DNA of 64,000 nt. Source: Phragmitibacter flavus. GTDB lineage: Bacteria; Verrucomicrobiota; Verrucomicrobiia; Verrucomicrobiales; Verrucomicrobiaceae. Within the stretch, counting starts at the first letter, position 1. Each line of letters opens with the position of its first letter. The stretch is taken from positions 186,001 through 250,000 of the forward strand of contig NZ_VAUV01000004.1 of the NCBI RefSeq assembly GCF_005780165.1, in the 5' to 3' direction. Below are positions 20,918 to 46,515 of the stretch, piece after piece. Made by a program: the position numbers and the translations under genes. The notes beneath the pieces were generated by a model. That model was not told where the DNA came from. It searched no databases and saw nothing but the letters and a program-made list of their open reading frames with translations.

Positions 20918-20934
20918 AACTCAACTCCGACTCC

Positions 20935-30835: not shown

Positions 30836-32140
30836 TCATGGTGTCCGCATGGTTTTCAGAATTCGCTGGATCATGTCTGCTTTGGAGACGTTTTTGCCCG
30901 GGCAGGTTGATTTGGAGTCAGGGGCTTCGCTATGAAGGCGCAGGTGCTCCTCGCCCAAACCAAGCTTCCGGTTCAGTATAGCGATTGCCGCGACGGTATT
31001 GTCGCGAATCTCGTCACTCAATGGATCGTGATTATAGTCCCCCACCATTTCGATGCCTATCGAAACTTTGTTCCAGGCACGGGCGTGGATTCCTGGTTCC
31101 GTGAGACGGTTGAGAACCCAGATTTTCTCCCTGTCTATGAACAGATGAGGTCCCCCGTTCCAATTCTTACTTTGAGTTATGAAATCATGGAATGACCGCA
31201 GTCCCCGCTCGGGAGATTTCTCCCATTTCTCCAACGGGCTGGCTGTATGATGCAGGACGACGAAGGATGGCTTCCAGTCATCAAAATGCAACTGTTCCAC
31301 ATAATTTTTAAACTGTTCTGGCGTGAATCCGGCCAGGACGAATTTGCCGGCCACTTCGCTCAGCTTCCTGTCTTCCGGTGTCGCATTGAGGTCTGAATCA
31401 ACACGAGCTTTGAACTCGGTGATGCCCTGGACCGCCTGTTCCTGGGAAAGACCGCGTTTTTCTGAGACATCTTCCAGTTTCCTGTTCGGATGTTGCGATA
31501 GTTCAAGCAATATTTCCCGGGTTTTATCTCCCTCATGGTCCATTTTCCAGAAAAGCAGTGCGGCGGAGAATGAGATACTTATCACCACAATTGCTGCCAG
31601 TCGCCATGGAGCTTTTCTTTCGTCTTTGATCAGGCGTTTCCAGTGATCTTCACGCACAGCTAGCCGGAGAACTTTTTCCCTTAGTTCTTCCAGGCTGGAA
31701 AATTCATGCCACACGTCGTTACCCGCACGCAATCGAGCCTGGTGTGAACGTTGCAGGACTTTTTTCTCCTCCGGTTCTGAGAATGTGAATCCTGCTGGAA
31801 GGTTGGACGGTTCCTCATAAAATCTCTCGGTTGGGAAAAAGAGATAAATGGGTCTTTCGTGTTGTGTAGCAGCATCATACTCGAGCTGAGTGTAGGATCG
31901 CCGCGGATTCATTGGAGGTTGGGGTTCCGAACCATAAACCAGCCCGGCAATATGAATGACGGCTTGGCACTCCTGAATGGTCGAGTTTTCTCGAAGGCGG
32001 ATATTTCCCGCGCTGACGGGGAAATGTTCCTGCACCACGGGATGACAGTGTGCATCAAGCAAGGCTTCGGACACAGTTTCACGCGCTTTGGCAAGATCGG
32101 CGCTCGTGGAGGAGATGAAGATATCGGGCCGGTTCCCCAT
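30836..32140 (-). CDS. DUF4062-TM-N-acetylmuramoyl-L-alanine amidase fusion
   Basis: A 434-residue protein in three parts. Residues 5-110 form a DUF4062/TIR-like domain (DIFISSTSADLAKARETV; ECQAVIHIAGLVYG). A transmembrane helix follows at 180-198 (LAAIVVISISFSAALLF). Residues 290-430 are an amidase_2/PGRP-type peptidoglycan amidase with metal ligands His297/298 (VVLHHTA), His403 (LRLHSE) and Cys413 (STCPGKN), and VSIGIEMVGDYN between. The predicted topology puts the Rossmann domain inside and the amidase in the periplasm, so the protein could cleave the cell's own wall on an internal signal (inference). It is last in the eight-gene minus-strand run, 6 bases after the TIR-SLOG gene. Confidence 0.82.
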   Translation of the reverse strand: MGNRPDIFISSTSADLAKARETVSEALLDAHCHPVVQEHFPVSAGNIRLRENSTIQECQAVIHIAGLVYGSEPQPPMNPRRSYTQLEYDAATQHERPIYLFFPTERFYEEPSNLPAGFTFSEPEEKKVLQRSHQARLRAGNDVWHEFSSLEELREKVLRLAVREDHWKRLIKDERKAPWRLAAIVVISISFSAALLFWKMDHEGDKTREILLELSQHPNRKLEDVSEKRGLSQEQAVQGITEFKARVDSDLNATPEDRKLSEVAGKFVLAGFTPEQFKNYVEQLHFDDWKPSFVVLHHTASPLEKWEKSPERGLRSFHDFITQSKNWNGGPHLFIDREKIWVLNRLTEPGIHARAWNKVSIGIEMVGDYNHDPLSDEIRDNTVAAIAILNRKLGLGEEHLRLHSEAPDSKSTCPGKNVSKADMIQRILKTMRTP

Positions 32141-32146
32141 AGGTTG

Positions 32147-34663
32147 TTAGGGTGCGATTTGGTGCTCCGTTTCCTTTTTCGTCGTCGATTTCAAGTTGCC
32201 GATGCCTGTCCAAATAAGCCTGCTGATGGTTCCGGAATTGCCCGCGCTGAGAAGGTCAAGATTCTCGTAGTGAGTGAGACCATTGCGGAAAATTTTCGCC
32301 AAATCACCATGTCCACTGACTTGATCAATATACCCCCTCAGTTTGTCGAAAGCGTCCTGTGGCGTCGGCATCTTAGGAAGGGTTGTAGGCAGTTTTTCCA
32401 ACTCTAAGAATGTCTCCGCATATTTCTCACTATGCTGTTTATAATATTCAATAGTGAGTTCGGGAGGCTGTTTGGCAGGAGGATGGATCAACCATTTTGC
32501 CAGCAGGGCGGCGGCACCACCGTATTCGGAGATGAGGTAGATAGGCTTTTTTGCTCTGACGGCGTGTAGGAATTCCTCGAACAAACCGGGCATGATACCG
32601 GCGAAGCCCAGCAATTTTCCTCCGATGAGGATGTGCGCGTGGGTTTTCACGCGCTTTGTTCCCAAAGTGTCCGAAAGAGAATCTGGCAGAGAACAAACAA
32701 GGAGGGATTTGGAGTCGCAGACTTTACGACGCATTGCGGAGTAGGCACGGGCTTCGATGGCGCGCCTACGAACGTGATATTCATTTTTAGCGTCTTCATA
32801 CTCCCGCTGTGTTTTCTGTCTTTCGGTGTAGGAAAGCGCGGCCAGTTCCTCGGGGTCGGGCGACGGCGGGGCTGGTTCCTGCAGAGATTTCAGTTCAATG
32901 CCGGTGTCCTCCGCCGTGACAGGGACGAAGCTGCAGATGTCAGTCCACTGGGCGATTGTTTTGGCTGAAATGGGCAGTTCGTGGCAGGGGGTGGGAATGT
33001 AGAGTCTGGGTTGTTCCTCGTGTTCGTTGATGGGTTGCCGCTCACCAGCTAGCAATCTGAGCATTGTGACGGTGAAGTTGATGCCTTTTTCCCAAGGTGG
33101 GGATGACTTAAGGTTTTTAGGCAAGGTTCCTCCGTAGAGAATCGATGCCTGGGCGTGCAGGAGCGGCCGCAGAAGCCGGACGAGGAGTTCCTGGATGTGC
33201 TCGTCCCACAGGCCTTTGGCCAGAATATCGCCGGGGTTGCCGACGGAGATTGCAATGACTTTTCCTTTGAGCTTGAGGCCTGCCCACCGATTGGAGGAGG
33301 AGCGGGAGAGAAAGGAGGTGAATTCACATTGAGGGAAAGCCGCTTTCAATCCTTCTCTGTCCATGCCGCTGAGTCCATACCCCGGGTGGACAAAGGAGCA
33401 TGCTTGATTGCCTTTAAGAAACAAATTGGTGGCTTTGTTGGCTAGGATGCGGTTGATGAGAAAGGGATCTGGACTGCGATTGATGAAGATTTCGCGGCAA
33501 TCTTTTTTTCGTTCGGCAATGCTTTCAGCCAGGAGGCGATGAAACAGGCTGAAGAGGATTTCTCGCAGCAGTGTGGTGACCACAAAGCGCGGTGTGGCAA
33601 AGTAGTCATCTGGAGTTTTGGTGGCCCAGCGGATACAAGGGGAGTAGCCCAGTTCGGGAATTGTGCGGGCGATTTGATGCCCCTTCATGGTTTGGACTAC
33701 GATAACTGGGTGGATGAAATACTGGAGGCGTTGTTCTTTGCTAGAATTAGGGTAGGCGAAGGGCTGGAGGAAATCGCGGATTTCCTTCCGGCACCAAGGG
33801 CGGTCAGCGTAATTGTCACCCTGGATGACGACAAGACCAGCGGAGTCTTGGGTGATGGAGTTTTCCAGAATGCGGGCATAATCGTAACCGGAGGCGATGT
33901 CGGTCTCGTCGAAAAAGGCTTCGCACTGGGTTTCTCGCTGGATGTATTCTTTGAGGGCGATGGCTTCCTTGGTGTCATCTGCCTTGGCGTGACTGAGAAA
34001 GATTTTGATCTTGTCGGGCGGTGACAGGGGCTGCTTGATTCGATTGCTGGCTTTTTTCTGGAACATGCGGGCGCGGAGGTCGCGACAGATGACTTCTGTC
34101 AACCGTGCTATAAGTGTTTCATCGTCGACGGGCTGATCATCTTTGGCGATGTGACGGATGAAGTTGAGCCGCCGCATGGATTCCGGCATGTTATAAGCGA
34201 GCGGCTCCATGGCGACGGGGAGGAGGACGCATTCCGCAGCTGCTGGGGGGGATTTCTTTGCTTTGGTTTTAGCGCTGCCAGTGGCTGGTGATGTGGGCAG
34301 CATTCCACCGACAAACGCGCTGACATAGCGTCGCCAATCTGGGCTGGCCACCATGTTTGCATCGATCAGCGGGATGATGTAATTCAGAATACCGGGGTCA
34401 TCATATAAGGGTGGAGGGACTGAGTCGCCGTAGGCGACTGCGCTGCGGAAGTAAACGGGAATGCCCTCCATATTTTCCAAGCGGAACCAGTGATAGAGGC
34501 GGCGGGCGAGCAGAAGGCCGCGTTGATTCTGGGTGGCAGGCTTGCTTTCTGGACCCGTTTCGCCGGATTTGACGTCCGTCACTTCGACCGATTCATCCAA
34601 GCCTGGATGCCAAAGGATATAGATACGAACGGGAGAAAGGCTGGAAATGGAGGCTGTGGGCAT
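32147..34663 (-). CDS. TIR-SLOG fusion protein (second copy)
   Basis: About 838 residues from the ATG at 34663; an in-frame TTG at 34717 would overlap the upstream gene. The N-terminal 200 residues contain a TIR-like Rossmann domain (RIYILWHPGLDES) with low-complexity inserts. The second TIR spans about 217-370 (IKIFLSHAKADDTKE; RPWCRKEIRDFLQPF, Trp290 and putative catalytic Glu294). The SLOG-type region follows (FVHPGYGLSGMDREGL; ASILYGGTLPKNL; IYLISEYGGAAALLAKWL). It has the same domain order as the 9538-11574 gene but is diverged and longer. It lies in the minus-strand operon after the HExxH protease, with a short gap. Confidence 0.8.
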   Translation of the reverse strand: MPTASISSLSPVRIYILWHPGLDESVEVTDVKSGETGPESKPATQNQRGLLLARRLYHWFRLENMEGIPVYFRSAVAYGDSVPPPLYDDPGILNYIIPLIDANMVASPDWRRYVSAFVGGMLPTSPATGSAKTKAKKSPPAAAECVLLPVAMEPLAYNMPESMRRLNFIRHIAKDDQPVDDETLIARLTEVICRDLRARMFQKKASNRIKQPLSPPDKIKIFLSHAKADDTKEAIALKEYIQRETQCEAFFDETDIASGYDYARILENSITQDSAGLVVIQGDNYADRPWCRKEIRDFLQPFAYPNSSKEQRLQYFIHPVIVVQTMKGHQIARTIPELGYSPCIRWATKTPDDYFATPRFVVTTLLREILFSLFHRLLAESIAERKKDCREIFINRSPDPFLINRILANKATNLFLKGNQACSFVHPGYGLSGMDREGLKAAFPQCEFTSFLSRSSSNRWAGLKLKGKVIAISVGNPGDILAKGLWDEHIQELLVRLLRPLLHAQASILYGGTLPKNLKSSPPWEKGINFTVTMLRLLAGERQPINEHEEQPRLYIPTPCHELPISAKTIAQWTDICSFVPVTAEDTGIELKSLQEPAPPSPDPEELAALSYTERQKTQREYEDAKNEYHVRRRAIEARAYSAMRRKVCDSKSLLVCSLPDSLSDTLGTKRVKTHAHILIGGKLLGFAGIMPGLFEEFLHAVRAKKPIYLISEYGGAAALLAKWLIHPPAKQPPELTIEYYKQHSEKYAETFLELEKLPTTLPKMPTPQDAFDKLRGYIDQVSGHGDLAKIFRNGLTHYENLDLLSAGNSGTISRLIWTGIGNLKSTTKKETEHQIAP

Positions 34664-34694
34664 GGCTTTGAATGGCTGATAATTTTGCAACGGA

Positions 34695-36608
34695 TCAGGC
34701 GAGTGTCCCGGTTTCAAGAAGAGTGAACATTATATGCGCTGTTGTTTCGAGCGTCCGCAGGTGTTCCTGATAGCTACGATAGGAGGAGGTGGGTTCTTCA
34801 CGGAGCCAAAGGTGGTCGGTGGCGGGACATTGGCCGATGTCTATGCCAAGTAGCTGGGTGCTGACATGGATGCGGCCATAACGGGCATCGCTGTCCCAAT
34901 AGGAAGCGAAGAGGGCTGGGCCGTCAAAGAAATGGAAGACGGCTTTTTTAATCATGTCCCGGTGGGTCTGGAAAAGGGCTTTCAAGGACTCCAGTTGCTG
35001 ATCACGTTCCCTTTTTAGGCGTGCAAGATCCCATTTTTCTTCGGAGGGATTATCGTAACGTTCGACTTGTTCCAGCAGTTTATTGGAGGCGAAGAAGACG
35101 TCGATGCGGTCCCATGGGCGGCCTTTGCGGAGCGGGAGAGCGGTCTTGAAGGCATCGGTGAGCCATTTGTTGGTGGAGCCGACGAAGCTGATGCGGTGGT
35201 GGGCGGCAAGCAAGACGATGGGCGGGTATTTGGTAATGCCATCCGGGCCAAGCAGGGTGGCGCGGAGGGTGGGCAGCATGTCTTCGGTGAACTGCCAGTC
35301 ACTTTGGGCGTTGATCCAGTCCGGTGGGGGAATTCGCTGGCGATATTTGAGGTGCCATGCTTTGAAGCGGGCGCGGAAGCGGTAGTCCTTTTCCTCCCGG
35401 ATGGCGAGGGCGAAAACGGAGGGCATTTGCAGAAAAGTAAGGCTATTCAGTTCAGTTTTGCGATTGCCTCTGAGCTGCTTTACCGCCTGTTCGATTTCGG
35501 ATGCGTTGGCGAGTTGCAGTGCGCTTATGCCAGGCAGTTTTTCCTGAAGGATCGGCAGCACCATCGCTTCAAAATCGTCCTTTAATTCTGTCGCTTTATC
35601 AGGGAGAATCTCCATCGATGTCACATCGGGTAGTCCTTCGATGGCTTTATCGGCAGCGATGCCGAGCATGAGGCGCAGGAACATCAACCGCAGTTCCGCT
35701 GGCGGGTAGGGATGGCTCTCGGTGAGCCGGCGGTTGAGCGACTGACGCCCCATGTAACGCCAGAGCGCATGGGTGAAGGCTTCGCCCGCGATGGCGGCAG
35801 CGGCGGCATCCGCGACGATCTCACGCATCCAGGCTTTCCAGAAACCGAAGTTGGGCTTGGCGGCGTCATTCTTGCCCAGCTCTTCCAGAATGGAGACGCT
35901 TACGCCCAGCGCGTCATCCACCGCATGGCCAACTTCGTGAGCGAGCAGGACAAGGTATTCCGGCAGGCCAGTGAGATCGGCGGGAAGGCAAATCACCGGG
36001 AATGGCGGCAGGGAGCCGAGCGAGCCGTTGCGATCACGCACCGTGATGGACTCGGTGAAAAGCGAGGGGATTTTAAGCGCCGCCGTTTCCTTCCAAATGG
36101 CCGGACTGCGTTGAGAATCGATGGCGACGATGGGGCCAACGGGGAGGCGCTTCGCATCTTGCCCGCTTCGCTTCAGAAGCTCCTGGAAGGCATCCACGCA
36201 ATACCAGTCCGCCGCTTCCAGAACCCGCGCGGAATCGGCGCTGCGGCGCGGCTTGAGGAAGGCTTCCACGACAAAACGAACGGCGGAGTCCAGATCGAAA
36301 CGATAGCTGGTCAAAAGGTGAATTGCGGGATTTGTGGGCGGATTGGCGTGCGGAGGGATTTCCTCATCGGGCTGGGGTGGCAGATTGGCGACCTGATCCC
36401 GCCACTCCACCAGTTTCGCCCGATGCGCGGAGAGGTATTGGTGGAGTTCCTTCGCATGTCTTGAAAACATGGAGAAATCCGCTGCGCCACCGCCATTCTG
36501 GTTGGCAAGGTCGTTCAAAGTCATCTCCGAGAGAACGAGCGTCTCATCGGCTTCGCTTAACGCGGCGCTACGAATGGTGGGCATGGCGCATCTGTTTAAA
36601 GGTGACAT
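34695..36608 (-). CDS. HExxH zinc-metalloprotease-like protein
   Basis: A 637-residue protein. The metal site is HEVGH (His224-His228) in YLVLLAHEVGHAVDDALG, and a downstream glutamate in MREIVADAAAAAIAGEAF fits a gluzincin-type third ligand. The N-terminal 200 residues include a helical segment. The C-terminal 150 residues carry a distinct block (YGRIHVSTQLLGIDIGQCPA ... DHLWLREEP) that recurs in other predicted conflict proteins as a possible signal-sensing part; I cannot name it. Its start overlaps the stop of the upstream metzincin gene by 13 bases, so they are co-translated. No signal peptide is seen, so a cytoplasmic protease is likely. Confidence 0.72.
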   Translation of the reverse strand: MSPLNRCAMPTIRSAALSEADETLVLSEMTLNDLANQNGGGAADFSMFSRHAKELHQYLSAHRAKLVEWRDQVANLPPQPDEEIPPHANPPTNPAIHLLTSYRFDLDSAVRFVVEAFLKPRRSADSARVLEAADWYCVDAFQELLKRSGQDAKRLPVGPIVAIDSQRSPAIWKETAALKIPSLFTESITVRDRNGSLGSLPPFPVICLPADLTGLPEYLVLLAHEVGHAVDDALGVSVSILEELGKNDAAKPNFGFWKAWMREIVADAAAAAIAGEAFTHALWRYMGRQSLNRRLTESHPYPPAELRLMFLRLMLGIAADKAIEGLPDVTSMEILPDKATELKDDFEAMVLPILQEKLPGISALQLANASEIEQAVKQLRGNRKTELNSLTFLQMPSVFALAIREEKDYRFRARFKAWHLKYRQRIPPPDWINAQSDWQFTEDMLPTLRATLLGPDGITKYPPIVLLAAHHRISFVGSTNKWLTDAFKTALPLRKGRPWDRIDVFFASNKLLEQVERYDNPSEEKWDLARLKRERDQQLESLKALFQTHRDMIKKAVFHFFDGPALFASYWDSDARYGRIHVSTQLLGIDIGQCPATDHLWLREEPTSSYRSYQEHLRTLETTAHIMFTLLETGTLA

Positions 36609-37429
36609 TCCTCTACCTTGTCAGCGCCTTTCTCAATGCGGTAGAGTTTTCCGAAGCCGGTTTTGTCATCATCGCTCAGGGCGAACTGCAGCGTGCCGTG
36701 GCCATTTAGCGGGTAGTGCATGACGGATTGGCTGTCCCATTCGGTAAGCTCCTCCGCTCCCAGGCCGCCGCTCACCCATTTTTCCATGCGCTTTTTCTCC
36801 GCCGCAGTCATCCCCTCCTGGGCTTTGGGATGGATTTGTTCGTGGCGGAATCCCAGCACATGCCCCAGCTCATGCCGGATGATGCCGACCCGGTCGTAGA
36901 GGAGGTCAAGAGCGAAAGTGCCGGGGCCGATGAACACGATGCGGTCTTTCTTTGCGGCGTTGGGGAAGAAGGCCAGCGCGAGCAAGTTAGGATCACTCGG
37001 AAAGGGATGGTAGGCAAAAGTGAAAGCGGCTTTCTTCCCGGGTTCTGCGGGAGCAAAGCGGATCATATCCAGAACACCCTCGTCTTTTGCAGCCCTGTTC
37101 CAATCGTCGGCGGCTTGGGCGCAAATTGTTTTCGCGGTTTGAAACCAGGCTTTGTGTTCGCCAAAGGAAACCTCATCAATCGTCCAGCTAAGCACTGTGC
37201 CGGGCGCCCAACGGAGTTTTTTGTCATTCAAAGTGGCGACGATGAGACGGTCCACCGTGGCGGCGTCACGCTTCTCGTTAGAAAGCAAGGCGAGAGTTTC
37301 CCTCGCATAATTTTGAAGCTGGCTTGCAGGAATCACCAAATCGTTTTCGACGATGTAGCCGGTTTCATTGCCCGCCTGAATGGTCCGGGCGGTCTTTATG
37401 ATGTGTTCAGTCAGTTCGTTGGCATTCAT
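36596..37429 (-). CDS. Metzincin-type zinc protease
   Basis: A 277-residue protein with the full metzincin signature HELGHVLGFRHE (His186, Glu187, His190, His196) and the Met-turn Ser-Val-Met-His-Tyr (Met237). This places it near the astacin/matrixin families. The N-terminal 75 residues are a helical region of the sort that may dock to a partner (ELTEHIIKTARTIQAG). No signal peptide or transmembrane helix is seen, unusual for metzincins, which are mostly secreted. The stop overlaps the start of the HExxH protease gene. The N-terminal part may be an adaptor-like domain shared with other gene products of the operon (inference). Confidence 0.85.
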   Translation of the reverse strand: MNANELTEHIIKTARTIQAGNETGYIVENDLVIPASQLQNYARETLALLSNEKRDAATVDRLIVATLNDKKLRWAPGTVLSWTIDEVSFGEHKAWFQTAKTICAQAADDWNRAAKDEGVLDMIRFAPAEPGKKAAFTFAYHPFPSDPNLLALAFFPNAAKKDRIVFIGPGTFALDLLYDRVGIIRHELGHVLGFRHEQIHPKAQEGMTAAEKKRMEKWVSGGLGAEELTEWDSQSVMHYPLNGHGTLQFALSDDDKTGFGKLYRIEKGADKVEECHL

Positions 37430-37476: not shown

Positions 37477-39729
37477 TTAAACGTATTTCTTGATGATCGG
37501 GATATAGCTGTCCCGGATGGCGTGATCCTTCACACTGAAGCCGGGGATGCGGAAGGCTTGGATCTGGGCGTCCGTTGGCGGCAGGTAGAGTGCATTAGGA
37601 TCGGTGGGTTCGGCCAATTCCTCGTCGAGCTGTTGCTGTAAAGCCTTGAATTGCGCTTGGTTTAGCTCGTCCCCGGTTTCGCCGCTTTCGGGGGAAAGCG
37701 TGGCGGCAAGTCCGGCCAACGCTGGGTTTTTCAGTTCGCCTTTACGATCGAACCAATATAACTCACCGAAGTGGGAAAAGTTCGGGGGAACGCGGGTGAC
37801 GATGTCATCATTGTTTCGGAATCTGAAGTAACGTCCGCCATGTTTCTGCTGGTAAAAATCCTCAATGGCGCTGCGCCCGAGCTTAGGCTGGCCATAGGTA
37901 TAGAAACAGAACTTCGCGCCTGGGAATTTTGCGACCAGCTCCGCGCCCGCGATGATGGCCAGCGCGCCGCCGAGACTGTGGCCGGTGACATGAATGACTT
38001 TGCTGGCGGCTGCGGCGGATTTCAGGTGAGCGAGTATCTGATCCTCGACCACCTTGTATGCCTCGTAGAAACCTTTGTGGACTTTCCCATACTGCCCTGC
38101 CCCGGTGTCATGGGAGGTGATGGTGAGATTGCGCAGCCAGTCGGCGACTTTCTTCTCCGACCCACGGAAGCTAAGAAGAACCGCATGGTCATCCCATGCG
38201 ACGAATCCCTGGGTCCCGGCTTTCTCGAAATGCTGGTAGCCTTTAAAACCCCAGCGCCCTAGGGCGAGGGATTTCGTCGCCGGTTTGTCACTGCTATAGG
38301 CTTCGTCGCTGGCGAGGGCGAGGGAGAGAGCATTCTGCCATGAGAAGGCGGTCTCCCGCAGCGTTTCACGGTCAAAGCCAGGCAGTTCCAAGGCCGATGT
38401 GCGGGCGGCCACCGCATCTTCGGAAGCGAAGTGGAGGGCGAGTCCCTGGCCGAGTTTTCGGTCGCTGATTTCTGCGGGATCCACGGAAAGCCCGCTGAGC
38501 GAACTCCCCGGCTGGGTCGTGGAAACCGCCCCTGTGAGATCATCTTTGCCGATGGACTTGAGCGTGAGCGCCTCTCCCTTTGCCAGCTTCATGACAGCGT
38601 CGATCACGGAAGGCTCGTTCACCAGCGTGCCATGCTCGCCAGTGACGAGATAGGCCTTGAGACCGGGAACCAGCGAGGAAAGATTCAACGCCGCGCCATC
38701 ACCTTCTTTGCTGAGGTGATCCATGTCCCTGTCGGTATGATCCGCGTTCCACGGCATGGCGGCAGTGGTGTCGATACCTTGGGAGACCAGATGCGTTGCG
38801 GAGGCAAAGATCGGACTGGCGAGAATGGTGTACTTCAACTCGCGGCTGGCATCCAAAAGGCGCTGCGAGGGCTTGATCTCACCCGGCCAGCCAGCCTGCG
38901 TGTAAAGATCAGCAGCCTCCGGGAACACCTGCGGATGGGGCAGCATGTCCACCAGCCCCGCGAAGCTAGCGGCCATTCGCTGAAAATCCTCCAGGCTCTC
39001 AAAGATGGAAAAACGATCCAGCTTATGGAACGAAGGCGCAAGCCCAAGAATGGTGACGGGCACGCTGTAAGAACCGCTGAGCGGCGAACCGACGAACACC
39101 GCGTGCTCCACCAGCGACTGCCAATCCGGGTGCCGCGCGGCGAAGGCGGCAGCCACCAACCCGCCCATGGAATGGCACACAAGCACCGCTTTCCGCCCCT
39201 GCTTCACCGAGTCCAGAGCGCGCAACTGCGCCGCGAGATCATCCGCCGCCGCCGTGACACTGCGCCGCCAGTCATAGCAGAACACGCGGTTCCTGAAGCG
39301 GGCGGTTGTCCAGGCATCGAGAGCCTTGTTGTATTTTTTCTCGACATGGCCATCCGTCCGCATAGTAACGCCCGGCGCATCGCTGACACCGTCACTTTGC
39401 AGCGTGAGCCGTTTGGAATATCGGCCTTTGACCAGTTCAAAGAGATCCAGCCAGATGCGGTTGCGCCGTTTAGCGACATCCGCCAGGTGGCAGTCCGTGA
39501 TGCCATGCACAAGGACGATCTCCGGCAGATCAGGATCAGGTGGCAAAGTAAGCCCCGCCGGAGCCGCCTCAAAGGGAGCTTCCGGCGAATGCGCCGCGAC
39601 AAGCGCCGCCGCCTTATCTTCACCAATTAACGGAATCAAAACTGCCCGCGTGGCCGTGTCCGCATTAAGGATCAATTGTGCGAGGTCCGCGTCGTCGAAG
39701 CATGAGATGAGGTCGGTGAGTGTGTTCAT
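37477..39729 (-). CDS. Double lipase/esterase (LCAT-like plus class 3 lipase)
   Basis: A 750-residue protein with two alpha/beta-hydrolase domains. The first has EIVLVHGITD and the nucleophile elbow VCHSMGGLVAA (Ser187). The second is a class 3 lipase with LLSFRGSEKKVADWLRNL, HKGFYEAY, the elbow VTGHSLGGALA (Ser585), an acid in RNNDDIVTRVPP and a His in NFSHFGELYWF. The first 50 residues (LISCFDDADLAQLILNAD) are a short helical module like an effector-associated adaptor. Target is probably membrane phospholipids. There is no secretion signal. It lies 47 bases upstream (in transcription) of the metzincin gene. Confidence 0.82.
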   Translation of the reverse strand: MNTLTDLISCFDDADLAQLILNADTATRAVLIPLIGEDKAAALVAAHSPEAPFEAAPAGLTLPPDPDLPEIVLVHGITDCHLADVAKRRNRIWLDLFELVKGRYSKRLTLQSDGVSDAPGVTMRTDGHVEKKYNKALDAWTTARFRNRVFCYDWRRSVTAAADDLAAQLRALDSVKQGRKAVLVCHSMGGLVAAAFAARHPDWQSLVEHAVFVGSPLSGSYSVPVTILGLAPSFHKLDRFSIFESLEDFQRMAASFAGLVDMLPHPQVFPEAADLYTQAGWPGEIKPSQRLLDASRELKYTILASPIFASATHLVSQGIDTTAAMPWNADHTDRDMDHLSKEGDGAALNLSSLVPGLKAYLVTGEHGTLVNEPSVIDAVMKLAKGEALTLKSIGKDDLTGAVSTTQPGSSLSGLSVDPAEISDRKLGQGLALHFASEDAVAARTSALELPGFDRETLRETAFSWQNALSLALASDEAYSSDKPATKSLALGRWGFKGYQHFEKAGTQGFVAWDDHAVLLSFRGSEKKVADWLRNLTITSHDTGAGQYGKVHKGFYEAYKVVEDQILAHLKSAAAASKVIHVTGHSLGGALAIIAGAELVAKFPGAKFCFYTYGQPKLGRSAIEDFYQQKHGGRYFRFRNNDDIVTRVPPNFSHFGELYWFDRKGELKNPALAGLAATLSPESGETGDELNQAQFKALQQQLDEELAEPTDPNALYLPPTDAQIQAFRIPGFSVKDHAIRDSYIPIIKKYV

Positions 39730-39831: not shown

Positions 39832-42800
39832 TTATTTGGCAGTCGTGGGAACCGGTGTGGTGATTTCGGTAGCTTTGATCTCCAACTCCAAAGCAGTCAT
39901 CACCTCCTTGAGCGTGATCCGACGCACCGGAGCACTGAGATCGATGTCTTTCATACGGCAAGTGGCTTGTTCGCTCTTTACAAGATCGACAAATTTCCAG
40001 AGGTTGCCGTCGAATTTTTGACCTATTTGTTTCTCCAGCGATTCCAAAACAAGAAATTGCAAAGTTCCTACGCAGAAAGGGCTTTTGAGGAGGTTAGCCA
40101 ATGAAGGGATGTCGAGGGATTGGCATGCGTGCTGAACTGCGAGATACTCGGGCGGCAGCGGATCACGACACTTTCCAGAAGAGTCCATAGAGGACGGGAT
40201 TGCGTCTGGCAGAAGTTGCTGGAGTAACAATTCTCGACAGATAGATAGGGTAGAGTCGCTGGGAAACGTTTTCATGAACACTAGCTGTGACAGACCTAAG
40301 GAAAACCTAGTTCTCTTGAAAAGGGCAAGAACCGTTCTGCTCGTTAAGTTGCGACAGAGGACTGAATTCAGCCTGTTTGCAAGACAGGCCAACGCCTCAG
40401 CCAAGACGAAAGGACGATTCAGATACCCCTGATCCGGTTCTTCGATGGCTCGAATCAAACTGTGTGCAAGCGGTGCTGTCGTGTCGTGGGTCAAATTATC
40501 CGAAAGTTTGATCAATGATTTGACAAGGTGACGAGAATTCGTCCCGTCAGACTTTATAAGAGCATCAACCAACTGTCGAGCCAGCGGAGCCGCTTCCTTC
40601 GCCGTTAGATTTTCCGATGACTCAGTAAGGCTAGAAAGACTATCCGCATTCTTTTCATGGGGCCTTATTACGGGGGGGGCGACCAAAAGTGGTGCCAGCC
40701 AAGCTGCCATCTCCGGCGTCAGTTTTTCAGCCAGCTTCGTCAATGATTTAATCAAAATGGAAACCCGTTCATCATTTCTTCCTTTCCACCGTTCGAGGTA
40801 TGAACCCAACACTCCGGCAAGCCGTTCTGCCATTTCTGGATTGAGATAATCCACTAGTAGGGCCAAGGACTCCCCCAGCGAGGAAAGGCTATCACTTGGC
40901 CAGATTTTTGGATATTCTAGGGCTGACACGGAGCTTTCAGTTAGCCACGCCACCATTTCCGGTGTCAGCTTGGAAGCCAATTTTTTCGATGATTTAGTAA
41001 GAAGGCAAATCTGTTCAACACCTTTATCTTCCGAGTCTTCAAGAGATGAACCCAAAATTATCGCAAGTGGCTCGGCCATCTTTGGTGGCAGATGAGCCAC
41101 AAGCTTGGCAAAGGACTCGGCGAAAGCGGAAAGACGAGCAGTATTCTTCTCATTAGTATTTCCGAGCGCTGAAGCGAGTTCCTTAGCTAGCGATGCTGCT
41201 ATATCCGGCGTCAGCCTGTGTGTAAGTTTGTTCAACGACTCGGCCAGAGCGGTAATGCGTTCGCGTTCCCACACTTTCGGATTTTCGAGGGCTGAAACCA
41301 AGCGGCTGGCAAGTTGTGCCGCCCTGTCTGGCGTCAGCTTTCCTTCGAGCTTGCTCAACGACTCAGGCAGGCGGGAAAGGTAATCCCTTTTCCACTCCTC
41401 CGGATTTTCGAGGCCAGAAATTAGGAGCTTGGTGTATGGATCTGCTTCGTCCGTCGTCAGCCTGGCGGCAAGTTTGACTATAGGTTCGGCCAAGGCGGGG
41501 AACCCTCCCGGATACTCCTTTCCCATTTTCTCGAGTGCATCAGCCAGGAGCTTCACCAAATGGGCCGCATTTACTGGGGTTAGCTTGTCCGCGAGCTTGC
41601 TCAATAACTCTGAACATAGTTTTCGTCGATCGTAAAACTGCGGATTCGTTTCCTCAAGGACTGAAACTAAGCGCCTTGCAAGACTCGCGGTCATCTCCGG
41701 CGTCAATTTGTCTGAAAGCTTCTTCAACGAATCGGAAAGATGAATAATATAGTCGGGATTGTTATCCTCCTTCTTGATGGCTGAAAGCAGGCGATGCGCG
41801 AACTGTTTCGCCATGTCCGGTGTCAGTTTATCTGCTAGTTTATCCAGTGAAGAAGATAAGTTGGAAAGACGATCACTATTCCGATCATTCCCATTTTCGA
41901 GTGCTAAAGTGATGCTTTTTGCAAGAGTCTCCGCTTCATTCGACGTTAGTTTGCCAATCAGATTGTCCAGTGACTTCGACAGGACGGAAAGACGATCTGG
42001 ATTTTGCTCTTCCGGCTTTACCTGGGCGGCAATCAGGCTTCGCGCAAGCGGGAACGCCTTATTTGGCGCCAGCTTGTTCGTGAGCGTGCCCAGCGGCTCG
42101 GCTAGGCGGGAAAGACGAAAAGAGTCCTCCTCCCCCCTCTGTTCGATGATTGAAACCAGGCTTCGAGCGAGATGTGCCGCCGTATCCGAAGTCACCTTGT
42201 CCGCGAGATTGGCCAGTGCTTCGGTTAGAGGGAAAAGGCGTCCGCGGTCCGACATCTGCGGATTCTCGATGGCTGAAACCAGTCGATCAGCGAGATGCGC
42301 CGCATCATCAGGCTCTAATCTTACGACGAATCTCATCATCAACTCTGCAAAAATAGAAAGCCGAGTAGAATCCGCATCCACTGGCTCTTCGATGGTTGAA
42401 ATCAACTTTTCTGCCCAAATAAAGGCATCGACACGATTCCGATTTAAGCCAACCGTCGCATGCAGGCCGACCGCCTGGTTCTTGAAGGCGGGCAGAGGGT
42501 CGCCAACCAGCCACACTCCCAATAATTTTTCACGAACTGCCTCATTCTTATCATTCAGTTCCGCAAGTTCCCACAGGGTGTTCACCTCAATAGACGATAG
42601 AGATGTCGATTGGCCGATGATACGCGAAAAGGTGTTAGTCAGTGCGGTCTGAGCAGCTTGTTTTTCTTTCCATGACGCCCAACCGAACCAGGCTGCCAGT
42701 GCTGCGAGTGCGACAACCGCGATTAGCCAGTTTCTCAGGGTTCCGGCTTTTGCTTTCTCCCGCTCCAGTTGGGCGATTTTATCCCATTTGGCCAAATCTC

Positions 42801-43512
42801 CGACATCTTTATCCAAAATTCCTGCAATGATGCGCAGAAGCTTTCCGTGCAAGTCCGTATTAAATGCCTCGACTTTCTTCGAAATGCCGCTTTCCCCTGC
42901 TGCTTTGAGGGCCTCTCGGTAAGCCGCAGGTGACGTCCAGCTTTGTGTGTTGTCTGGGAGGCGGAAGTCAGCAAAGTCGATCTCGGCTTCAATGTCCGAT
43001 ATTTTTTGATCTTCTCCCAACTTATACGAAAGAGATTTGGGATAACAGGGTTTTTCATCATCAGGGAGCTTTCCATCTCCTTTGTTTCGATGTGGATCTC
43101 CTTGGATAATGATTGGCAGGAGACAGTAATCCTCCTTTTTGCCTTTTTCTATGTTTTGCTTTTTGAATTCAAGGATTTCATCGCACATCCATGGACTTTC
43201 TGGAGCCTCGGGAGTGCAGAGGACGATCATGTAACGGGAGCGCCTGACTCTGGCACGTATTTCATCGGAGAGACTGGACCCATAAGGAAGCTGTTTTTCA
43301 TCACGAAAGACGGGATAGAGTCTTTCAGCAATCGTTTCTCCCCGTTTGTTTTTCGTGCCAACGAGTTCGGGCGGTATTTCGTAGGCTTGCAAAGCCTCTT
43401 GCAGCCAACTGCCCCATTGTCTTCCGGGTTCCCGGTTGTTGATGTGGCGGTAGCTGATGAAGCACCAGAACTCGCGTTCGGCATGGTTTTCAGGCGCTCC
43501 TTTGGGATTCAT
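39832..43512 (-). CDS. TIR-TM protein with about 17 tandem 41-residue helical repeats
   Basis: A 1226-residue protein. The TIR domain (about 14-150) starts EFWCFISYRHINN and carries SPWMCDEILEFKKQ with Trp108 and putative catalytic Glu112. A transmembrane helix lies at 262-279 (WLIAVVALAALAAWFGW). From about 370 to 1067 about 17 repeats of 41 residues run end to end, with a consensus of LVSALEN, about six variable residues, RLSxLxESLxKLADKLTP and DxAAxLAxR. They form two-helix units like HEAT repeats. A final 160 residues differ. It belongs to the eight-gene operon, between the cell-wall hydrolase and the lipase. Confidence 0.82.
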   Translation of the reverse strand: MNPKGAPENHAEREFWCFISYRHINNREPGRQWGSWLQEALQAYEIPPELVGTKNKRGETIAERLYPVFRDEKQLPYGSSLSDEIRARVRRSRYMIVLCTPEAPESPWMCDEILEFKKQNIEKGKKEDYCLLPIIIQGDPHRNKGDGKLPDDEKPCYPKSLSYKLGEDQKISDIEAEIDFADFRLPDNTQSWTSPAAYREALKAAGESGISKKVEAFNTDLHGKLLRIIAGILDKDVGDLAKWDKIAQLEREKAKAGTLRNWLIAVVALAALAAWFGWASWKEKQAAQTALTNTFSRIIGQSTSLSSIEVNTLWELAELNDKNEAVREKLLGVWLVGDPLPAFKNQAVGLHATVGLNRNRVDAFIWAEKLISTIEEPVDADSTRLSIFAELMMRFVVRLEPDDAAHLADRLVSAIENPQMSDRGRLFPLTEALANLADKVTSDTAAHLARSLVSIIEQRGEEDSFRLSRLAEPLGTLTNKLAPNKAFPLARSLIAAQVKPEEQNPDRLSVLSKSLDNLIGKLTSNEAETLAKSITLALENGNDRNSDRLSNLSSSLDKLADKLTPDMAKQFAHRLLSAIKKEDNNPDYIIHLSDSLKKLSDKLTPEMTASLARRLVSVLEETNPQFYDRRKLCSELLSKLADKLTPVNAAHLVKLLADALEKMGKEYPGGFPALAEPIVKLAARLTTDEADPYTKLLISGLENPEEWKRDYLSRLPESLSKLEGKLTPDRAAQLASRLVSALENPKVWERERITALAESLNKLTHRLTPDIAASLAKELASALGNTNEKNTARLSAFAESFAKLVAHLPPKMAEPLAIILGSSLEDSEDKGVEQICLLTKSSKKLASKLTPEMVAWLTESSVSALEYPKIWPSDSLSSLGESLALLVDYLNPEMAERLAGVLGSYLERWKGRNDERVSILIKSLTKLAEKLTPEMAAWLAPLLVAPPVIRPHEKNADSLSSLTESSENLTAKEAAPLARQLVDALIKSDGTNSRHLVKSLIKLSDNLTHDTTAPLAHSLIRAIEEPDQGYLNRPFVLAEALACLANRLNSVLCRNLTSRTVLALFKRTRFSLGLSQLVFMKTFPSDSTLSICRELLLQQLLPDAIPSSMDSSGKCRDPLPPEYLAVQHACQSLDIPSLANLLKSPFCVGTLQFLVLESLEKQIGQKFDGNLWKFVDLVKSEQATCRMKDIDLSAPVRRITLKEVMTALELEIKATEITTPVPTTAK
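40312..42405 (-). repeat. Tandem 123-base coding repeats
   Basis: Within the TIR-repeat gene about 17 units of 41 codons follow each other without spacers. Copies are diverged at the base level but share LTPxxAAxLAxxLVSALEN-type cores; two late copies are shortened by about three codons. Such arrays can gain or lose units by recombination and usually build elongated binding surfaces. Confidence 0.75.
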
Positions 43513-43526
43513 TGAGCGGCTGTTTC

Positions 43527-45479
43527 CTATTTTGGTTCCCCTTCGATCAAAATCACGGCATCCGAGATTCTGCCGGATTTGGGGAATCTTGTGCCGAGTT
43601 TTGCTTTCATGGCTTCGATGATGTCGATGACGCGCTGGCGGCTGTCTGTAAAGTTGATTTTGGAATTGGCGTCTTTCAGACCATCAGTGGGATTGAGGCA
43701 GCCGATGCTGCTGAGGTAATTCTCGCCGGGGTGGATGAGGATGGCGGTGCGTTCTTCGGTTTTCTGCAGGAGGAGGCCGGGCCTGGGCCGGTCTTTCCCG
43801 CTGGTATAGCCGTAGGTCTTGTAATTGGTGCCGTCCTGGATGGCGAGAGTGTAGGTTCCAGCGGCGATGCGGCGGTCTTGGTTGTCGCCGATGGCGGTGG
43901 TGTTATCGCCGGGGCCACCGCGTTCGACGATCTGGCCCCTGAGGTTTTTGATGGCGACGCCGTTCCAGTAACAGGTGTATTCACCGATAGTGCGGGCGTA
44001 GGCGATGCCGCTACGTTTCTCTTGGCGGATGCGTTTCAGATGGATGCAGAAGCCCTGTGCGGCGATGGCGGCGGGGCCGTGCAAACCGGCGGCCTGTGGT
44101 TGCGTGGAGGCCCGAGCGGCGGGGAGGTTGTTTTTCCACTGGTTCAGGAATGGCGTGGGATCGATGATGTCGCGACGGCGGAGGTAGGGAACGCCTGCGG
44201 CGGTGCGGGCGCCGACGGATGCGCCGACGCTGAGGGGGCCGGAGGCGGTTTTGTCATAGAGTTCCAGATGGAGCATGTCGCTGGGGACGGTGATGCCGAC
44301 GAGGTGGCCGACTTCGGCGATGGCTTGCCCGGCTCTGACGCGGTCTCCCTGCCTGACTTCGGCGTTGGCGGCGATCTCTCCATAACGGGCGATGAAGGTG
44401 CCGTGGTCGATCTCAAGCGCGTAAGTCCGGGCATAGAAGTCATAGGGACCGCGAATGACGACGCCGTCGGTGATCGCATGGATGACGGTTCCGGCGGGGA
44501 AATAGAGGTCGCACCCGGCATGGGCGCGGCTGCCGCTGGCGCGGCGCGCGCCGAAGGAACGCGGGGCGCTTGTCCAGTTGGCGGAGGGGAGCGTGGAGAA
44601 GGGGAAGTAGTGAGCAGGCGCTGCGAGTGCCGGTTCCTCTACGGAGTCGGTCAGCGGGCCGGTCTCGATGATGCGGAGCATTTCGCGCCAGGTTTTACCT
44701 TCCGGCTCAATGAGGCCGTCCGGCCGGGTGAGGAAGCGGCTCTGGAAGACTTTGATGGCTTTGACGGTGCTCGGCTTGGCCTCGTTGGAGGCGATCTTGC
44801 CGTCGTTGCCGAGGGGGTCGCAGGCGGGATTTGGCAGGATGATGGAGATTTGCAGAAGCATTTCCTGAACGGTTTTCACGTCTGCTTCGGTGTTCTGAGC
44901 GCCTTTTGCCGGGTCGCCGACAGAGCCTTTGATAACCCAGGAAGTGGTGATGCCGTCGAGGCTAACATTGACGCTTTGGTCGTCCGTGCCGTTGCGGCGG
45001 ATGCCGGGTTCCAGCAGTTCCAAAGTGGCGTTGAACTCGGACACGGGGACTTTGAAGCCACCGCCGATTTCATAGGCGGCCATGGCGGAGAATAAGTTGC
45101 GCAGCTGGCCGACATTGCCGATGGCCTGGGTGGTGGGATCGAAGATTTCGAGCCGTGTGTTCGGCCCGACGCCGACTCTGGCGATGACAAAGGCGGTGTA
45201 TTGCGCAGGGGAGTTGGGCGGCGCGCCCGGGAGGGAGCCGATGGTGTCGCTGGAGGGTGCCCAACGGGAGAGGATTTCGGCAATAGTTCTGCGGTTGTGC
45301 CGGAAGAAGTAGGATTTGAGCTGGAGGATGCCGGCACGGATGCCGTAAACGGCATCCTGAAAGACGGCGTGCCCTCTGGTATCGGTGCTGGAGTTTCTTC
45401 CATTGGCATCGAGCCAAGGAGACCGACCGTTTTTGACGTTGAGGTAATTCTTGTTTCGGATTCCTGTGGGTGTCGGCAT
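43527..45479 (-). CDS. Multidomain peptidoglycan hydrolase (P5-like, PG-binding, M23, DUF5675)
   Basis: A 650-residue protein. Residues 1-140 match the structural-protein P5-like domain of phage virion lysins (GIRNKNYLNVKNG; HAVFQDAVYGIRAG). Residues about 195-270 resemble a PG-binding-type helical module. Residues 300-410 are an M23 endopeptidase (SRAHAGCDLYFPAGT, His320 and Asp324; DMLHLELYD, His404), with Met where the first His of the usual HxH stands. From about 470 a DUF5675 domain follows (FCIHLKRIRQEKRSG; RTAILIHPGENY), an L,D-transpeptidase-like family. No signal peptide is present. It starts 14 bases before the TIR-repeat gene. Confidence 0.8.
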   Translation of the reverse strand: MPTPTGIRNKNYLNVKNGRSPWLDANGRNSSTDTRGHAVFQDAVYGIRAGILQLKSYFFRHNRRTIAEILSRWAPSSDTIGSLPGAPPNSPAQYTAFVIARVGVGPNTRLEIFDPTTQAIGNVGQLRNLFSAMAAYEIGGGFKVPVSEFNATLELLEPGIRRNGTDDQSVNVSLDGITTSWVIKGSVGDPAKGAQNTEADVKTVQEMLLQISIILPNPACDPLGNDGKIASNEAKPSTVKAIKVFQSRFLTRPDGLIEPEGKTWREMLRIIETGPLTDSVEEPALAAPAHYFPFSTLPSANWTSAPRSFGARRASGSRAHAGCDLYFPAGTVIHAITDGVVIRGPYDFYARTYALEIDHGTFIARYGEIAANAEVRQGDRVRAGQAIAEVGHLVGITVPSDMLHLELYDKTASGPLSVGASVGARTAAGVPYLRRRDIIDPTPFLNQWKNNLPAARASTQPQAAGLHGPAAIAAQGFCIHLKRIRQEKRSGIAYARTIGEYTCYWNGVAIKNLRGQIVERGGPGDNTTAIGDNQDRRIAAGTYTLAIQDGTNYKTYGYTSGKDRPRPGLLLQKTEERTAILIHPGENYLSSIGCLNPTDGLKDANSKINFTDSRQRVIDIIEAMKAKLGTRFPKSGRISDAVILIEGEPK

Positions 45480-45603
45480 GGCGTTCGAGTAGGTTAATGT
45501 TCGGTTTACGGGCGAAGGGCTCTGTCAGAGATAGAAGTTGGGCTTAATCGGGAGAAGAAAACTGCCATCGGAAATTAAGCGTTTGATCCTTCATCCAACG
45601 ATT

Positions 45604-46515
45604 TCAATTCGTTTCGTCCACATGACTCAGACGTTGAATGGTCGTCGGTTGATTGTTTTTCCATTTGGATTCGACGACTCGTTGAAAAAATTGTGCCCAT
45701 TCACCAGCTAGGCGTGGTTCGTTATTTCCAAGTGCGGCGATAATGGCGTTCCGGTCTCCCATCAGTGGGGTGAAAAAAGTTTCACCAGTTTTTGGATGGT
45801 ATTCCCCAAGCCATTTTTTTGAGCCTTTTTTCCACCATCCAAGCCCGGCGTGGTAAAAGTTTTTTACTCGAACACCCTTGGTATCCAGGTCCTCGACTTG
45901 CTCAGGATTAAGGAGATCCCAGAGTCCACCGTAATGATCCTGGTCATTGTGAGAACAAATCATCGCTTCCAGTTCGATCTGGTCGACTGCATAGTCATGG
46001 AAGAATTTCCAGTCTACAAAATCGGCTGCATTTTTTCCGGCATCCTGACTGGTCCTGGGCCAGCCCCCGTCGATGAGGATGTGCTGAAAGTCTGGGGTCT
46101 TTATGAGCAATCCGTCGCCTTGTCCTACATCAATGTAATAAAACTCCATTAAAGACTTTCCGCCCAAACTTTCATTCTTCACCCAACCGACACGATCCCG
46201 ACCTCTACTTCGCACCTTTGTCCGATCGACTCCCGGCTCTAGAATTTTTACGCCGTCTCCCCAGAGAAGATGAATACGCACAGGATCTTTTCCATCGCTA
46301 GATGGCTTGTCATTCCAGTAGAGTTCGGCCGTGTCCGTGCTGATGTGGTCATCGAATGGAGTGTTCATTAATATGGCTGTGTTATGAGCTTTAGAACGTG
46401 GGGCTTCCCGGTTCTCCTTGGAGAATCTATTGGCAATGGAATACTCCCTGTTACCCTTGGAATCGAAAAATATTACGCGATCAACGGAAAAATATCTATC
46501 GGGCTTTGTTGCCAT
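45604..46515 (-). CDS. MBL-fold protein, possibly C-terminally truncated
   Basis: About 303 residues from the ATG at 46515; a longer frame to 46617 exists but adds non-family sequence. The MBL strand YYIDVGQGDGLLIKTPD is followed by the metal motif CSHNDQDHYGG. Typical ComEC-like MBL proteins continue with further metal ligands (a G-D and a final His). Here the frame ends at LSHVDETN shortly after an expected C-terminal region starts, so it may be truncated or use only one metal site. It is the first gene of the minus-strand run, 124 bases before the hydrolase gene, so its place in the operon is probable but not tight. Confidence 0.65.
   Translation of the reverse strand: MATKPDRYFSVDRVIFFDSKGNREYSIANRFSKENREAPRSKAHNTAILMNTPFDDHISTDTAELYWNDKPSSDGKDPVRIHLLWGDGVKILEPGVDRTKVRSRGRDRVGWVKNESLGGKSLMEFYYIDVGQGDGLLIKTPDFQHILIDGGWPRTSQDAGKNAADFVDWKFFHDYAVDQIELEAMICSHNDQDHYGGLWDLLNPEQVEDLDTKGVRVKNFYHAGLGWWKKGSKKWLGEYHPKTGETFFTPLMGDRNAIIAALGNNEPRLAGEWAQFFQRVVESKWKNNQPTTIQRLSHVDETN

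What the first reader, a model, noticed from the sequence alone, without database searches (positions are those of the whole stretch)
30836..46515. Eight-gene minus-strand operon carrying two proteases, two lipase domains, two cell-wall hydrolases and two TIR proteins
Eight genes on one strand with short gaps or overlaps (gaps of 6 to about 124 bases, one 13-base overlap) encode, in transcription order, MBL, P5/M23/DUF5675 hydrolase, TIR-TM-17-repeat, double lipase, metzincin, HExxH protease, TIR-SLOG and DUF4062-TM-amidase. Nearly every gene has an intact catalytic motif for attacking a host structure: NAD+, membrane lipid, protein or peptidoglycan. Several also carry helical N-terminal parts that might be adaptors. 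I know of no described system with this gene order. It could be a multi-effector suicide system with one trigger, or a toolbox for attacking competitors.
Basis: partly seen in the sequence, partly recalled or inferred. Interest (0 to 1): 0.9.

Follow-up and report, generated by a model that had tools for sequence, protein, structure and literature searches.

The report
TIR-SLOG-linked lipase and protease module
Inside a bacterial defence island, a recurring set of genes pairs a probable NAD-signalling protein with enzymes that look able to cut the cell's own lipids and proteins, and sometimes its wall, which suggests a controlled self-destruct system.

Summary
The eight minus-strand genes exist but are not one conserved operon. 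A four-gene core recurs: g4 double lipase, g5 metzincin, g6 HExxH protease, g7 TIR-SLOG. All four types recur in Verrucomicrobium sp. BvORR106 and in a Pirellulaceae MAG (another phylum); three of four in Verrucomicrobia MAG-85. A fifth locus keeps TIR-SLOG and HExxH with trypsin and subtilase. Elsewhere the parts are fused: Lipase_3-TIR-SLOG-CHAT, once Amidase_2-Lipase_3-TIR-SLOG-CHAT. In 22 genomes, 10 of 25 Lipase_3 hits lie within 10 kb of an LD_cluster2 SLOG domain (0.12 expected); conversely 22 of 33 such domains have no Lipase_3 near. Amidases join TIR-SLOG in five loci, including g8. g2 has a relative in a different protease cluster. g1 shows only half an MBL fold, so 'intact motifs' fails there. 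The last domain of g6 is PLD-like, single-copy, and also found on a caspase and cyclase-like proteins; more likely a sensor than a homotypic adaptor. Best reading: an NAD-derived signal, made or sensed by TIR-SLOG, releases hydrolases against the cell's own protein, membrane and wall. Activity and phage defence are inferred, not shown.

The parts
37477..39729 (-). g4, core: double lipase (LCAT/PGAP1-like alpha/beta hydrolase + Lipase_3), 750 aa
   Evidence: Pfam; S187 and S585 and neighbouring residues invariant in 4 of 4 aligned proteins, window included
36596..37429 (-). g5, core: metzincin, HELGHVLGFRH
   Evidence: Pfam astacin; HExxHxxGxxH kept in 3 of 3 aligned, window included
34695..36608 (-). 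g6, core: HExxH protease with a C-terminal PLD-like domain
   Evidence: HEVGH and E263, D267 invariant in 4 of 4 aligned, window included; no match in Pfam, PADLOC, PHROGs or NCBIfam at the limits used
34698..35279 (-). g6 C-terminal domain (PLD-like fold, HKD lysine absent)
   Evidence: AlphaFold2 model pLDDT 85.5, pTM 0.84; VIA-align best Z 10.1, TrmB effector domain (rmsd 3.1, 128 aligned)
32147..34717 (-). g7, core: TIR-SLOG (LD_cluster2); start may be 34663
   Evidence: Pfam; glutamate of WC[RQ]xE kept in 17 of 17 TIR-SLOG proteins without fused lipase or CHAT that were aligned
30836..32140 (-). g8, partner in some loci: DUF4062-TM-Amidase_2
   Evidence: Pfam; one TM at 177-201; full-length relative next to a g7-like TIR-SLOG gene in L100
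39832..43512 (-). g3, accessory: TIR-TM-41-residue repeats
43527..45479 (-). g2, accessory: P5-like/M23/DUF5675 wall hydrolase
   Evidence: Pfam, PHROGs; relative without the M23 part in L114

Best explanation
The core is a TIR-SLOG-controlled, multi-hydrolase self-destruct (probably anti-phage) module. The TIR domain of g7, with its catalytic glutamate intact, would cut NAD+ and make an ADP-ribose-type signal; the SLOG domain would bind it or a related nucleotide. The activated TIR-SLOG then licenses the hydrolases of the same operon: two proteases (g5, g6), a double lipase (g4) and, in this genome, a membrane-anchored amidase with its catalytic part facing the periplasm (g8). Together they would break protein, membrane lipid and wall, killing the infected cell. 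Shown: conserved co-occurrence, fusions, conserved motifs, no strongly hydrophobic segment in g4-g7. Inferred: enzyme activities, the signal, the trigger, the direction of activation, the topology of g8, defence.
For: g4, g5, g6 and a TIR-SLOG recur in L033/G400 and L034; g4, g6 and TIR-SLOG recur in L035/G429. Full-length g6 relatives (protease plus C-terminal domain) lie within 10 kb of a TIR-SLOG gene in 5 of 5 genomes, window included. The 3 of 3 loci that a scan of genome contigs found for g4 all have one, as does the fifth known full-length g4, in L103, which was reached through TIR-SLOG. In L034 the set stands apart from the opposite-strand genes around it, and none of the 30 window proteins matches those flanks (flanks not scanned by Pfam); identities to the window are 52% (g4), 50% (g5), 37% (g6) and 26-28% (TIR-SLOG). 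Fusions: Lipase_3-TIR-SLOG in 5 proteins from 4 genomes, 4 shown to end in CHAT (the fifth is cut by its contig end), 2 beginning with Amidase_2. Lipase_3 within 10 kb of LD_cluster2: 10 of 25 in 22 genomes, 0.12 expected; 8 of 22 against 0.10 without the window genome and the genome found through its lipase. L050 has trypsin and subtilase beside TIR-SLOG and HExxH. Setting: GajA/GajB-like pair, caspase-MBL locus, ThsB-like TIR, integrase.
Against: I found no activity or phage assay for any member. No NTPase sensor is common to the core loci, so the trigger is unknown. 22 of 33 LD_cluster2 genes surveyed have no Lipase_3 within 10 kb. In G429 and L050 the TIR-SLOG beside g6 is closer to the window's other TIR-SLOG (9538-11574) than to g7, and G429's g7-like gene lies on another contig without a lipase match. 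Relatives of the g6 protease domain without its C-terminal domain (L051 twice, L053, L056, L117, L118) show no g7 or TIR-SLOG match nearby, and proteins with only that C-terminal domain (L025, L054) also show none. In 3 of the 4 Lipase_3 fusions aligned the TIR glutamate is lost (L094, L096, L102; L097 not aligned), so there TIR-SLOG could only be a receptor or scaffold. The fused amidase in L102 has no TM segment. The fusions come from four genomes of two genera in one family; the enrichment is not corrected for relatedness. The core is rare: full-length g6 in 3 of 386 genomes of the order.
Confidence: 0.55

Rival explanations
1. Separate defence cassettes merely stacked in a defence island: g1-g3, g4-g7 and g8 act independently and share only a neighbourhood.
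For: g1 and g2 do not recur with the core; the window is crowded with other TIR and defence genes; 22 of 33 LD_cluster2 genes stand without Lipase_3 within 10 kb.
Against: Does not explain g4, g5, g6 and TIR-SLOG as a compact set in L034 or the domain fusions. It probably does hold for g1, and perhaps for g2 and g3.
Confidence: 0.2
2. A proteolytic and lipid-signalling regulatory system, not suicidal: proteases process proenzymes and the lipase makes a lipid signal.
For: MBL nucleases elsewhere are proenzymes opened by a partner protease (PMC12799240: abstract, introduction and one section read); g6 carries a PLD-like domain also seen on cyclase-like proteins.
Against: Several kinds of degradative chemistry are combined and fused, and the set varies in protease type, which fits demolition better than a specific pathway (inference).
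Confidence: 0.12
3. Secreted effectors for attacking competitors or prey.
For: Lipases, metzincins and peptidoglycan hydrolases are typical effector activities (general knowledge); g2 and g8 act on wall polymers by family.
Against: No PF04984 sheath in 8 of 8 genomes (the same search rings in 3 of 14 well-known control genomes); no strongly hydrophobic segment in g4-g7; fusion to SLOG/TIR implies intracellular nucleotide control. T6SS was not tested and immunity genes were not searched for.
Confidence: 0.08

Closest known systems
Thoeris (ThsB TIR + ThsA SLOG effector)
   Same: TIR that makes an ADP-ribose-type signal and a SLOG domain that reads it (recalled; SLOG as sensor of cADPR variants is also stated in PMC9503650, passages)
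   Different: TIR and SLOG sit in one protein or two overlapping ORFs, SLOG is the LD_cluster2 type, and the presumed effectors are lipases, proteases and amidases
NTP-dependent conflict systems with swappable effectors (Kaur et al. 2020, PMC7159879, passages read)
   Same: Trypsin, caspase, metallopeptidase, alpha/beta-hydrolase, cyclase, TIR and SLOG parts exchanged among systems; alpha/beta hydrolase paired with caspase
   Different: No MoxR-vWA, GAP1 or EACC1 core was seen among the eight genes by Pfam; the recurring part here is TIR-SLOG with lipase and HExxH
Caspase-nuclease (Canu) and AVAST type 1 MBL/protease pairs (PMC12799240: abstract, introduction and one section read)
   Same: Protease genes beside an MBL gene in a defence island
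   Different: g1 shows only half the MBL fold; a Canu-like set is present elsewhere in the window (18336-22035)
S8/patatin/PLD/CHAT gene cluster of a Bradyrhizobium quebecense plasmid (L117)
   Same: A distant relative of the HExxH protease among several lipases and proteases
   Different: No TIR-SLOG match in the 16.3 kb read and no g6 C-terminal domain

Membership tests
Thoeris | Separate ThsB TIR protein and ThsA-type effector with SLOG | tested here: not met
   g7 has both domains in one protein; PADLOC: weak ThsB (E 0.0015) and no ThsA for g1-g8; NCBIfam Thoeris type III ThcB4 matches g7 and g3 far under its cut-off (25.4 and 15 against 220 bits)
Thoeris | TIR-made cADPR isomer activates the SLOG effector | not testable with these tools
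   needs biochemistry; TIR glutamate intact in g7
Kaur et al. NTP-dependent conflict systems | MoxR-vWA, GAP1-GTPase or EACC1-caspase core in the operon | tested here: not met
   Pfam on all eight genes shows none; whether Pfam has models for all these cores was not checked
Effector-associated (homotypic) adaptor domain | Further copies per genome, on core component and effector | tested here: not met
   g6 C-terminal domain has exactly 1 match (E up to 0.001) in each of 7 of 7 genomes known to hold it
Active phospholipase D / HKD enzyme (g6 C-terminal domain) | HxK catalytic motif (recalled) | tested here: not met
   H138 and S140 invariant in 9 of 9, so no lysine at +2
PLD-like fold (g6 C-terminal domain) | Overall fold similarity | tested here: met
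   TrmB Z 10.1, SauUSI 9.4, Streptomyces phospholipase D rows mostly 8.3-8.7, many other PLD-like chains lower; Foldseek has one match with E up to 0.001 (TrmBL2, 5e-4), then SauUSI and phosphatidylserine synthases. The tool warns that Z of 7-8 is common without kinship
CBASS | CD-NTase gene in the operon | tested here: not met
   no such family among the eight
Canu / AVAST type 1 (for g1) | Full MBL nuclease fold | tested here: not met
   only positions 3-91 of 346 and 6-88 of 387 matched
eCIS/tailocin cargo | Contractile sheath in the genome (tested by PF04984 only) | tested here: not met
   PF04984 0 of 8 genomes
T6SS effectors | T6SS genes in the genome | not tested

The most novel reading that the evidence does not exclude
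TIR-SLOG defines a family of lytic executioners in which a single NAD-derived signal fires protease, lipase and wall amidase together. It exists both as a gene set (lipase, metzincin, HExxH protease, TIR-SLOG, with amidase) and as an all-in-one protein (Amidase_2-Lipase_3-TIR-SLOG-CHAT), in which the TIR has decayed to a receptor.
Probability: 0.4. Interest if true: 0.85.

Novelty: new variant of a known kind. Interest (0 to 1): 0.7.

Why it matters
Most characterised bacterial suicide systems use one killing chemistry per trigger (general knowledge). Here a probable NAD-signalling hub is tied, by operon and by fusion, to up to three layers of demolition. The all-in-one fusion proteins make the link directly testable in one purified protein, and they give a handle on the LD_cluster2 SLOG family, whose names (PF18163, LD_cluster2, SLOG cluster) occur in no paper of the library searched.

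Tried and rejected
Single-protein g6 search of 387 phylum genomes found only the window and the C-terminal domain on a cyclase-like protein; profile searches did better. Viral contigs: no g6 relative. g6 in plasmids and phages: no match; the L050 relative as query gave two plasmids. The g6 whole-chain model was poor (pLDDT 58.3) and its Foldseek search gave no match at E up to 0.001. g1 in plasmids: 64 records match, none over 80% cover; of the 8 rows shown, 6 match only about residues 156-244, one 116-238 and one (Rhizobium, E 4e-5) 118-333, so a relative of most of g1's second part may exist and 'remnant' is not proven. g7 in plasmids: 7 records, 23-31% identity; the neighbourhoods of two of them (L119, L120) list no lipase or protease (PLSDB gene tables are incomplete), a result against a general rule. 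g4 in plasmids: 16 records, each with only part of g4 covered; several of the matched features are named CHAT- or trypsin-domain proteins. g8 in plasmids gave only partial matches. A regular expression for the CHAT cysteine found it in 3 of 8 proteins; an alignment then showed the His and Cys columns in 5 of 5 aligned (which residues are catalytic is recalled).

Paper searches (listings seen): SLOG+CHAT domain+TIR+lipase 0 papers; metzincin+TIR+lipase+anti-phage 0; SLOG+TIR+Thoeris+lipase+operon 1; 'TIR-SLOG' 1; PF18163/LD_cluster2/SLOG cluster 0; searches listed nothing that names this gene set in title or abstract start. The library lacks most subscription papers; the DOI that I recalled for the 2015 SLOG classification paper was not held, so a prior mention of some fusions cannot be excluded.

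ORF lists kept only ORFs above a length limit and dropped strongly overlapping shorter ones. HMMs match their own building members by construction; the L096 and L097 amidase hits and the L103 and L109 CHAT hits are the independent ones. The TIR-SLOG model was not run on L051, L053, L056 or L025; there only single-sequence searches with window proteins were made.
Full report
What is there. The window lies in a genome of the same family as G400; G400 is Verrucomicrobium sp. BvORR106 by its contig of 176097 bases. It carries eight minus-strand ORFs at 30836-46617. In transcription order: g1 MBL-like, g2 P5-like/M23/DUF5675, g3 TIR-TM-41-residue repeats, g4 double lipase, g5 metzincin, g6 HExxH protein, g7 TIR-SLOG, g8 DUF4062-TM-amidase. 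Spacing is 124, 14, 102, 47, -13, -23 (or +31 with a later ATG) and 6 bases. Promoter and terminator scans are no better than shuffles, so the operon claim rests on spacing and comparison.

Not all motifs are intact. g1 matches only about the first 90 positions of the MBL part of models, has no match at E 1e-8 in the other 140 of 141 genomes searched, and by my reading stops before the point where the full-length MBL at 20935-22035 carries its second metal-site half. One plasmid record matches g1 residues 118-333, so it may be a divergent protein rather than a remnant. The lipase serines (S187, S585), HELGHVLGFRH, HEVGH plus E263/D267, and the TIR glutamate are conserved among the relatives aligned.

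The recurring unit is g4-g7. TBLASTN of window proteins against fetched neighbourhoods shows: L033/G400, lipase-metzincin-HExxH-(phosphorylase-domain protein with weak STAND-like matches under their cut-offs; its first 907 of 1167 residues were scanned)-TIR-SLOG; L034 (Pirellulaceae MAG PLA7), TIR-SLOG (as two overlapping ORFs)-lipase-metzincin-HExxH, with opposite-strand genes around it that match none of the window proteins; L035/G429, TIR-SLOG, HExxH, a second TIR-SLOG and lipase on mixed strands, no metzincin match, with a Roc-COR-TIR protein near. L050/G984 has TIR-SLOG-trypsin-subtilase-HExxH-LRR-Roc-COR-TIR on one strand. Full-length g6 relatives have a TIR-SLOG gene within 10 kb in 5 of 5 genomes, window included. 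For g4, the 3 of 3 loci of the genome-contig scan have one, as do the window and L103. The core is rare: full-length g6 in 3 of 386 genomes of the order, and 2 of 392 in the phylum of PLA7, one of them divergent; the single-sequence search of 387 phylum genomes found none besides the window.

What does not fit. In G429 and L050 the TIR-SLOG beside g6 is nearer to the window's other TIR-SLOG (9538-11574) than to g7, and G429's g7-like gene is on another contig. In L034 the TIR-SLOG is only 26-28% identical to g7, against 52, 50 and 37% for g4, g5 and g6. Protease-domain relatives without the g6 C-terminal domain (L051 twice, L053, L056, L117, L118) have no g7 or TIR-SLOG match in the stretches read, nor have L025 and L054, which carry only the C-terminal domain. 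Two plasmid TIR-SLOG genes (L119, L120) have no listed lipase or protease within 8 kb or the record's end. So the association is with a subset of TIR-SLOG genes and of HExxH genes.

Fusions. LD_cluster2 (PF18163) was sought in 239 genomes of the order (16 positive) and 199 of the PLA7 phylum (5 positive): 33 genes after merging one split row. Of these, 5 are fused to Lipase_3 (L094, L095, L096, L097, L102) and 7 to CHAT (L092, L094, L095, L096, L102, L103, L109; L097 is cut by its contig end); L102 and L097 also begin with Amidase_2 (Pfam for L092, L094, L095, L096, L102; my own HMMs for L097, L103, L109). The CHAT His and Cys columns are kept in 5 of 5 aligned. A trypsin-alpha/beta-hydrolase fusion (L093) lies ~4 kb from a TIR-SLOG gene, and a gene with a patatin match just under its cut-off overlaps the end of one in L099. 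In 22 genomes (the 21 with LD_cluster2 plus G984), 10 of 25 Lipase_3 matches are within 10 kb of LD_cluster2, 0.12 expected under uniform placement; leaving out the window genome and the genome found by its lipase, 8 of 22 against 0.10. Five of the ten are the fusions, from four genomes of two genera in one family, so these are not independent events. Counted the other way, 11 of 33 LD_cluster2 genes have a Lipase_3 within 10 kb and 22 do not. In 3 of the 4 Lipase_3 fusions aligned the TIR glutamate is gone, so the fused TIR is probably a receptor.

g8 and the others. A full-length g8 relative follows a g7-like TIR-SLOG gene in L100, and a separate amidase ORF lies beside the fusion in L096. 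With the two fusions and the window, amidase meets TIR-SLOG in five loci. g8 has one TM at 177-201; the positive residues before it suggest that the amidase faces the periplasm (my reading). The fused amidase of L102 has no TM (L097 not tested). g3-like TIR proteins lie beside TIR-SLOG genes in L091 and L103. g2's only relative in 141 genomes besides itself (L114, without the M23 part) follows, on one strand, an NNH3/NACHT-like pentapeptide gene (NACHT itself under its cut-off), an unknown gene and a C1 protease with a GHSAG motif (my reading): another multi-hydrolase cluster, but a different one.

The end of g6. Residues ~444-637 are a domain shared with a cyclase-like protein (L025, my reading of its sequence; L052 by Pfam), a caspase (L031/L055) and a 1212-residue protein with a GDSL-lipase match under its cut-off and a caspase-like start (my reading) that sits beside a metzincin (L054). 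A model from nine sequences (pLDDT 85.5, pTM 0.84) resembles PLD-like folds: TrmB effector domain Z 10.1 (rmsd 3.1, 128 aligned), SauUSI 9.4, Streptomyces phospholipase D mostly 8.3-8.7; Foldseek alone gave one match at E up to 0.001. The HKD lysine is replaced by an invariant serine. It occurs once in each of 7 of 7 genomes known to hold it, which argues against a homotypic adaptor of the EAD kind (PMC7159879, passages) and for a ligand- or membrane-sensing part.

Mechanism. Most likely: TIR-SLOG makes and/or reads an NAD-derived signal and releases lipase and proteases held in the cytoplasm, with the amidase attacking the wall from the periplasm. Shown: association, fusion, motif conservation, no strongly hydrophobic segment in g4-g7. 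Inferred: every activity, the trigger and phage defence. The setting supports defence: a GajA/GajB-like pair, a caspase, a 531-residue protein and an Avs1a-like MBL (the MBL is under the Avs1a cut-off), a ThsB-like TIR and an integrase in the same window. No PF04984 sheath was found in 8 of 8 genomes; T6SS was not tested.

Novelty. My searches found no paper that joins SLOG, CHAT domain, TIR and lipase, one that uses 'TIR-SLOG' (passages read), and none with PF18163, LD_cluster2 or 'SLOG cluster'. The 2015 SLOG classification was not available under the DOI I recalled. I therefore call it a new variant of a known kind: nucleotide-signal-controlled suicide, with an unusual effector set of up to three layers.

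Noticed in passing
window 18336-22035 (+): Caspase (C14), 531-aa unknown protein and Avs1a-like MBL in a row: resembles the described caspase-nuclease (Canu) gene order (PMC12799240 section read).
   Followed up: partly
window 14662-18233 (+): OLD-like ATPase/TOPRIM plus UvrD helicase, overlapping by 4 bases: looks like Gabija GajA/GajB (name recalled).
   Followed up: no
window 26455-27632 (+): Two ORFs that both match one intact 387-aa DUF4062-like protein in L099: the gene looks broken here.
   Followed up: partly
window 28131-29018 (+): ThsB-like TIR (PADLOC ThsB, E 8e-73), followed by a TIR-TM protein; no ThsA among the 10 proteins scanned with PADLOC.
   Followed up: no
window 9538-11574 (-): A second TIR-SLOG of another subfamily; a 59% identical copy lies in G400 about 27 kb from the g7 relative.
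   Followed up: partly
window 1466-3554 (+): 5-hmdU DNA kinase helical-domain protein (PF18723, E 4e-108) next to a thymidylate-synthase-like gene: phage-type base-modification genes in a bacterial genome.
   Followed up: no
L117 2249-11971: Bradyrhizobium quebecense plasmid cluster: S8 peptidase, patatin, DUF2252, PLD, HExxH relative, two CHAT proteins.
   Followed up: partly
L034 7660-9932 and L021 16090-18416: TIR and SLOG parts in two overlapping ORFs in both loci, which may be a genuine split form rather than an error.
   Followed up: no
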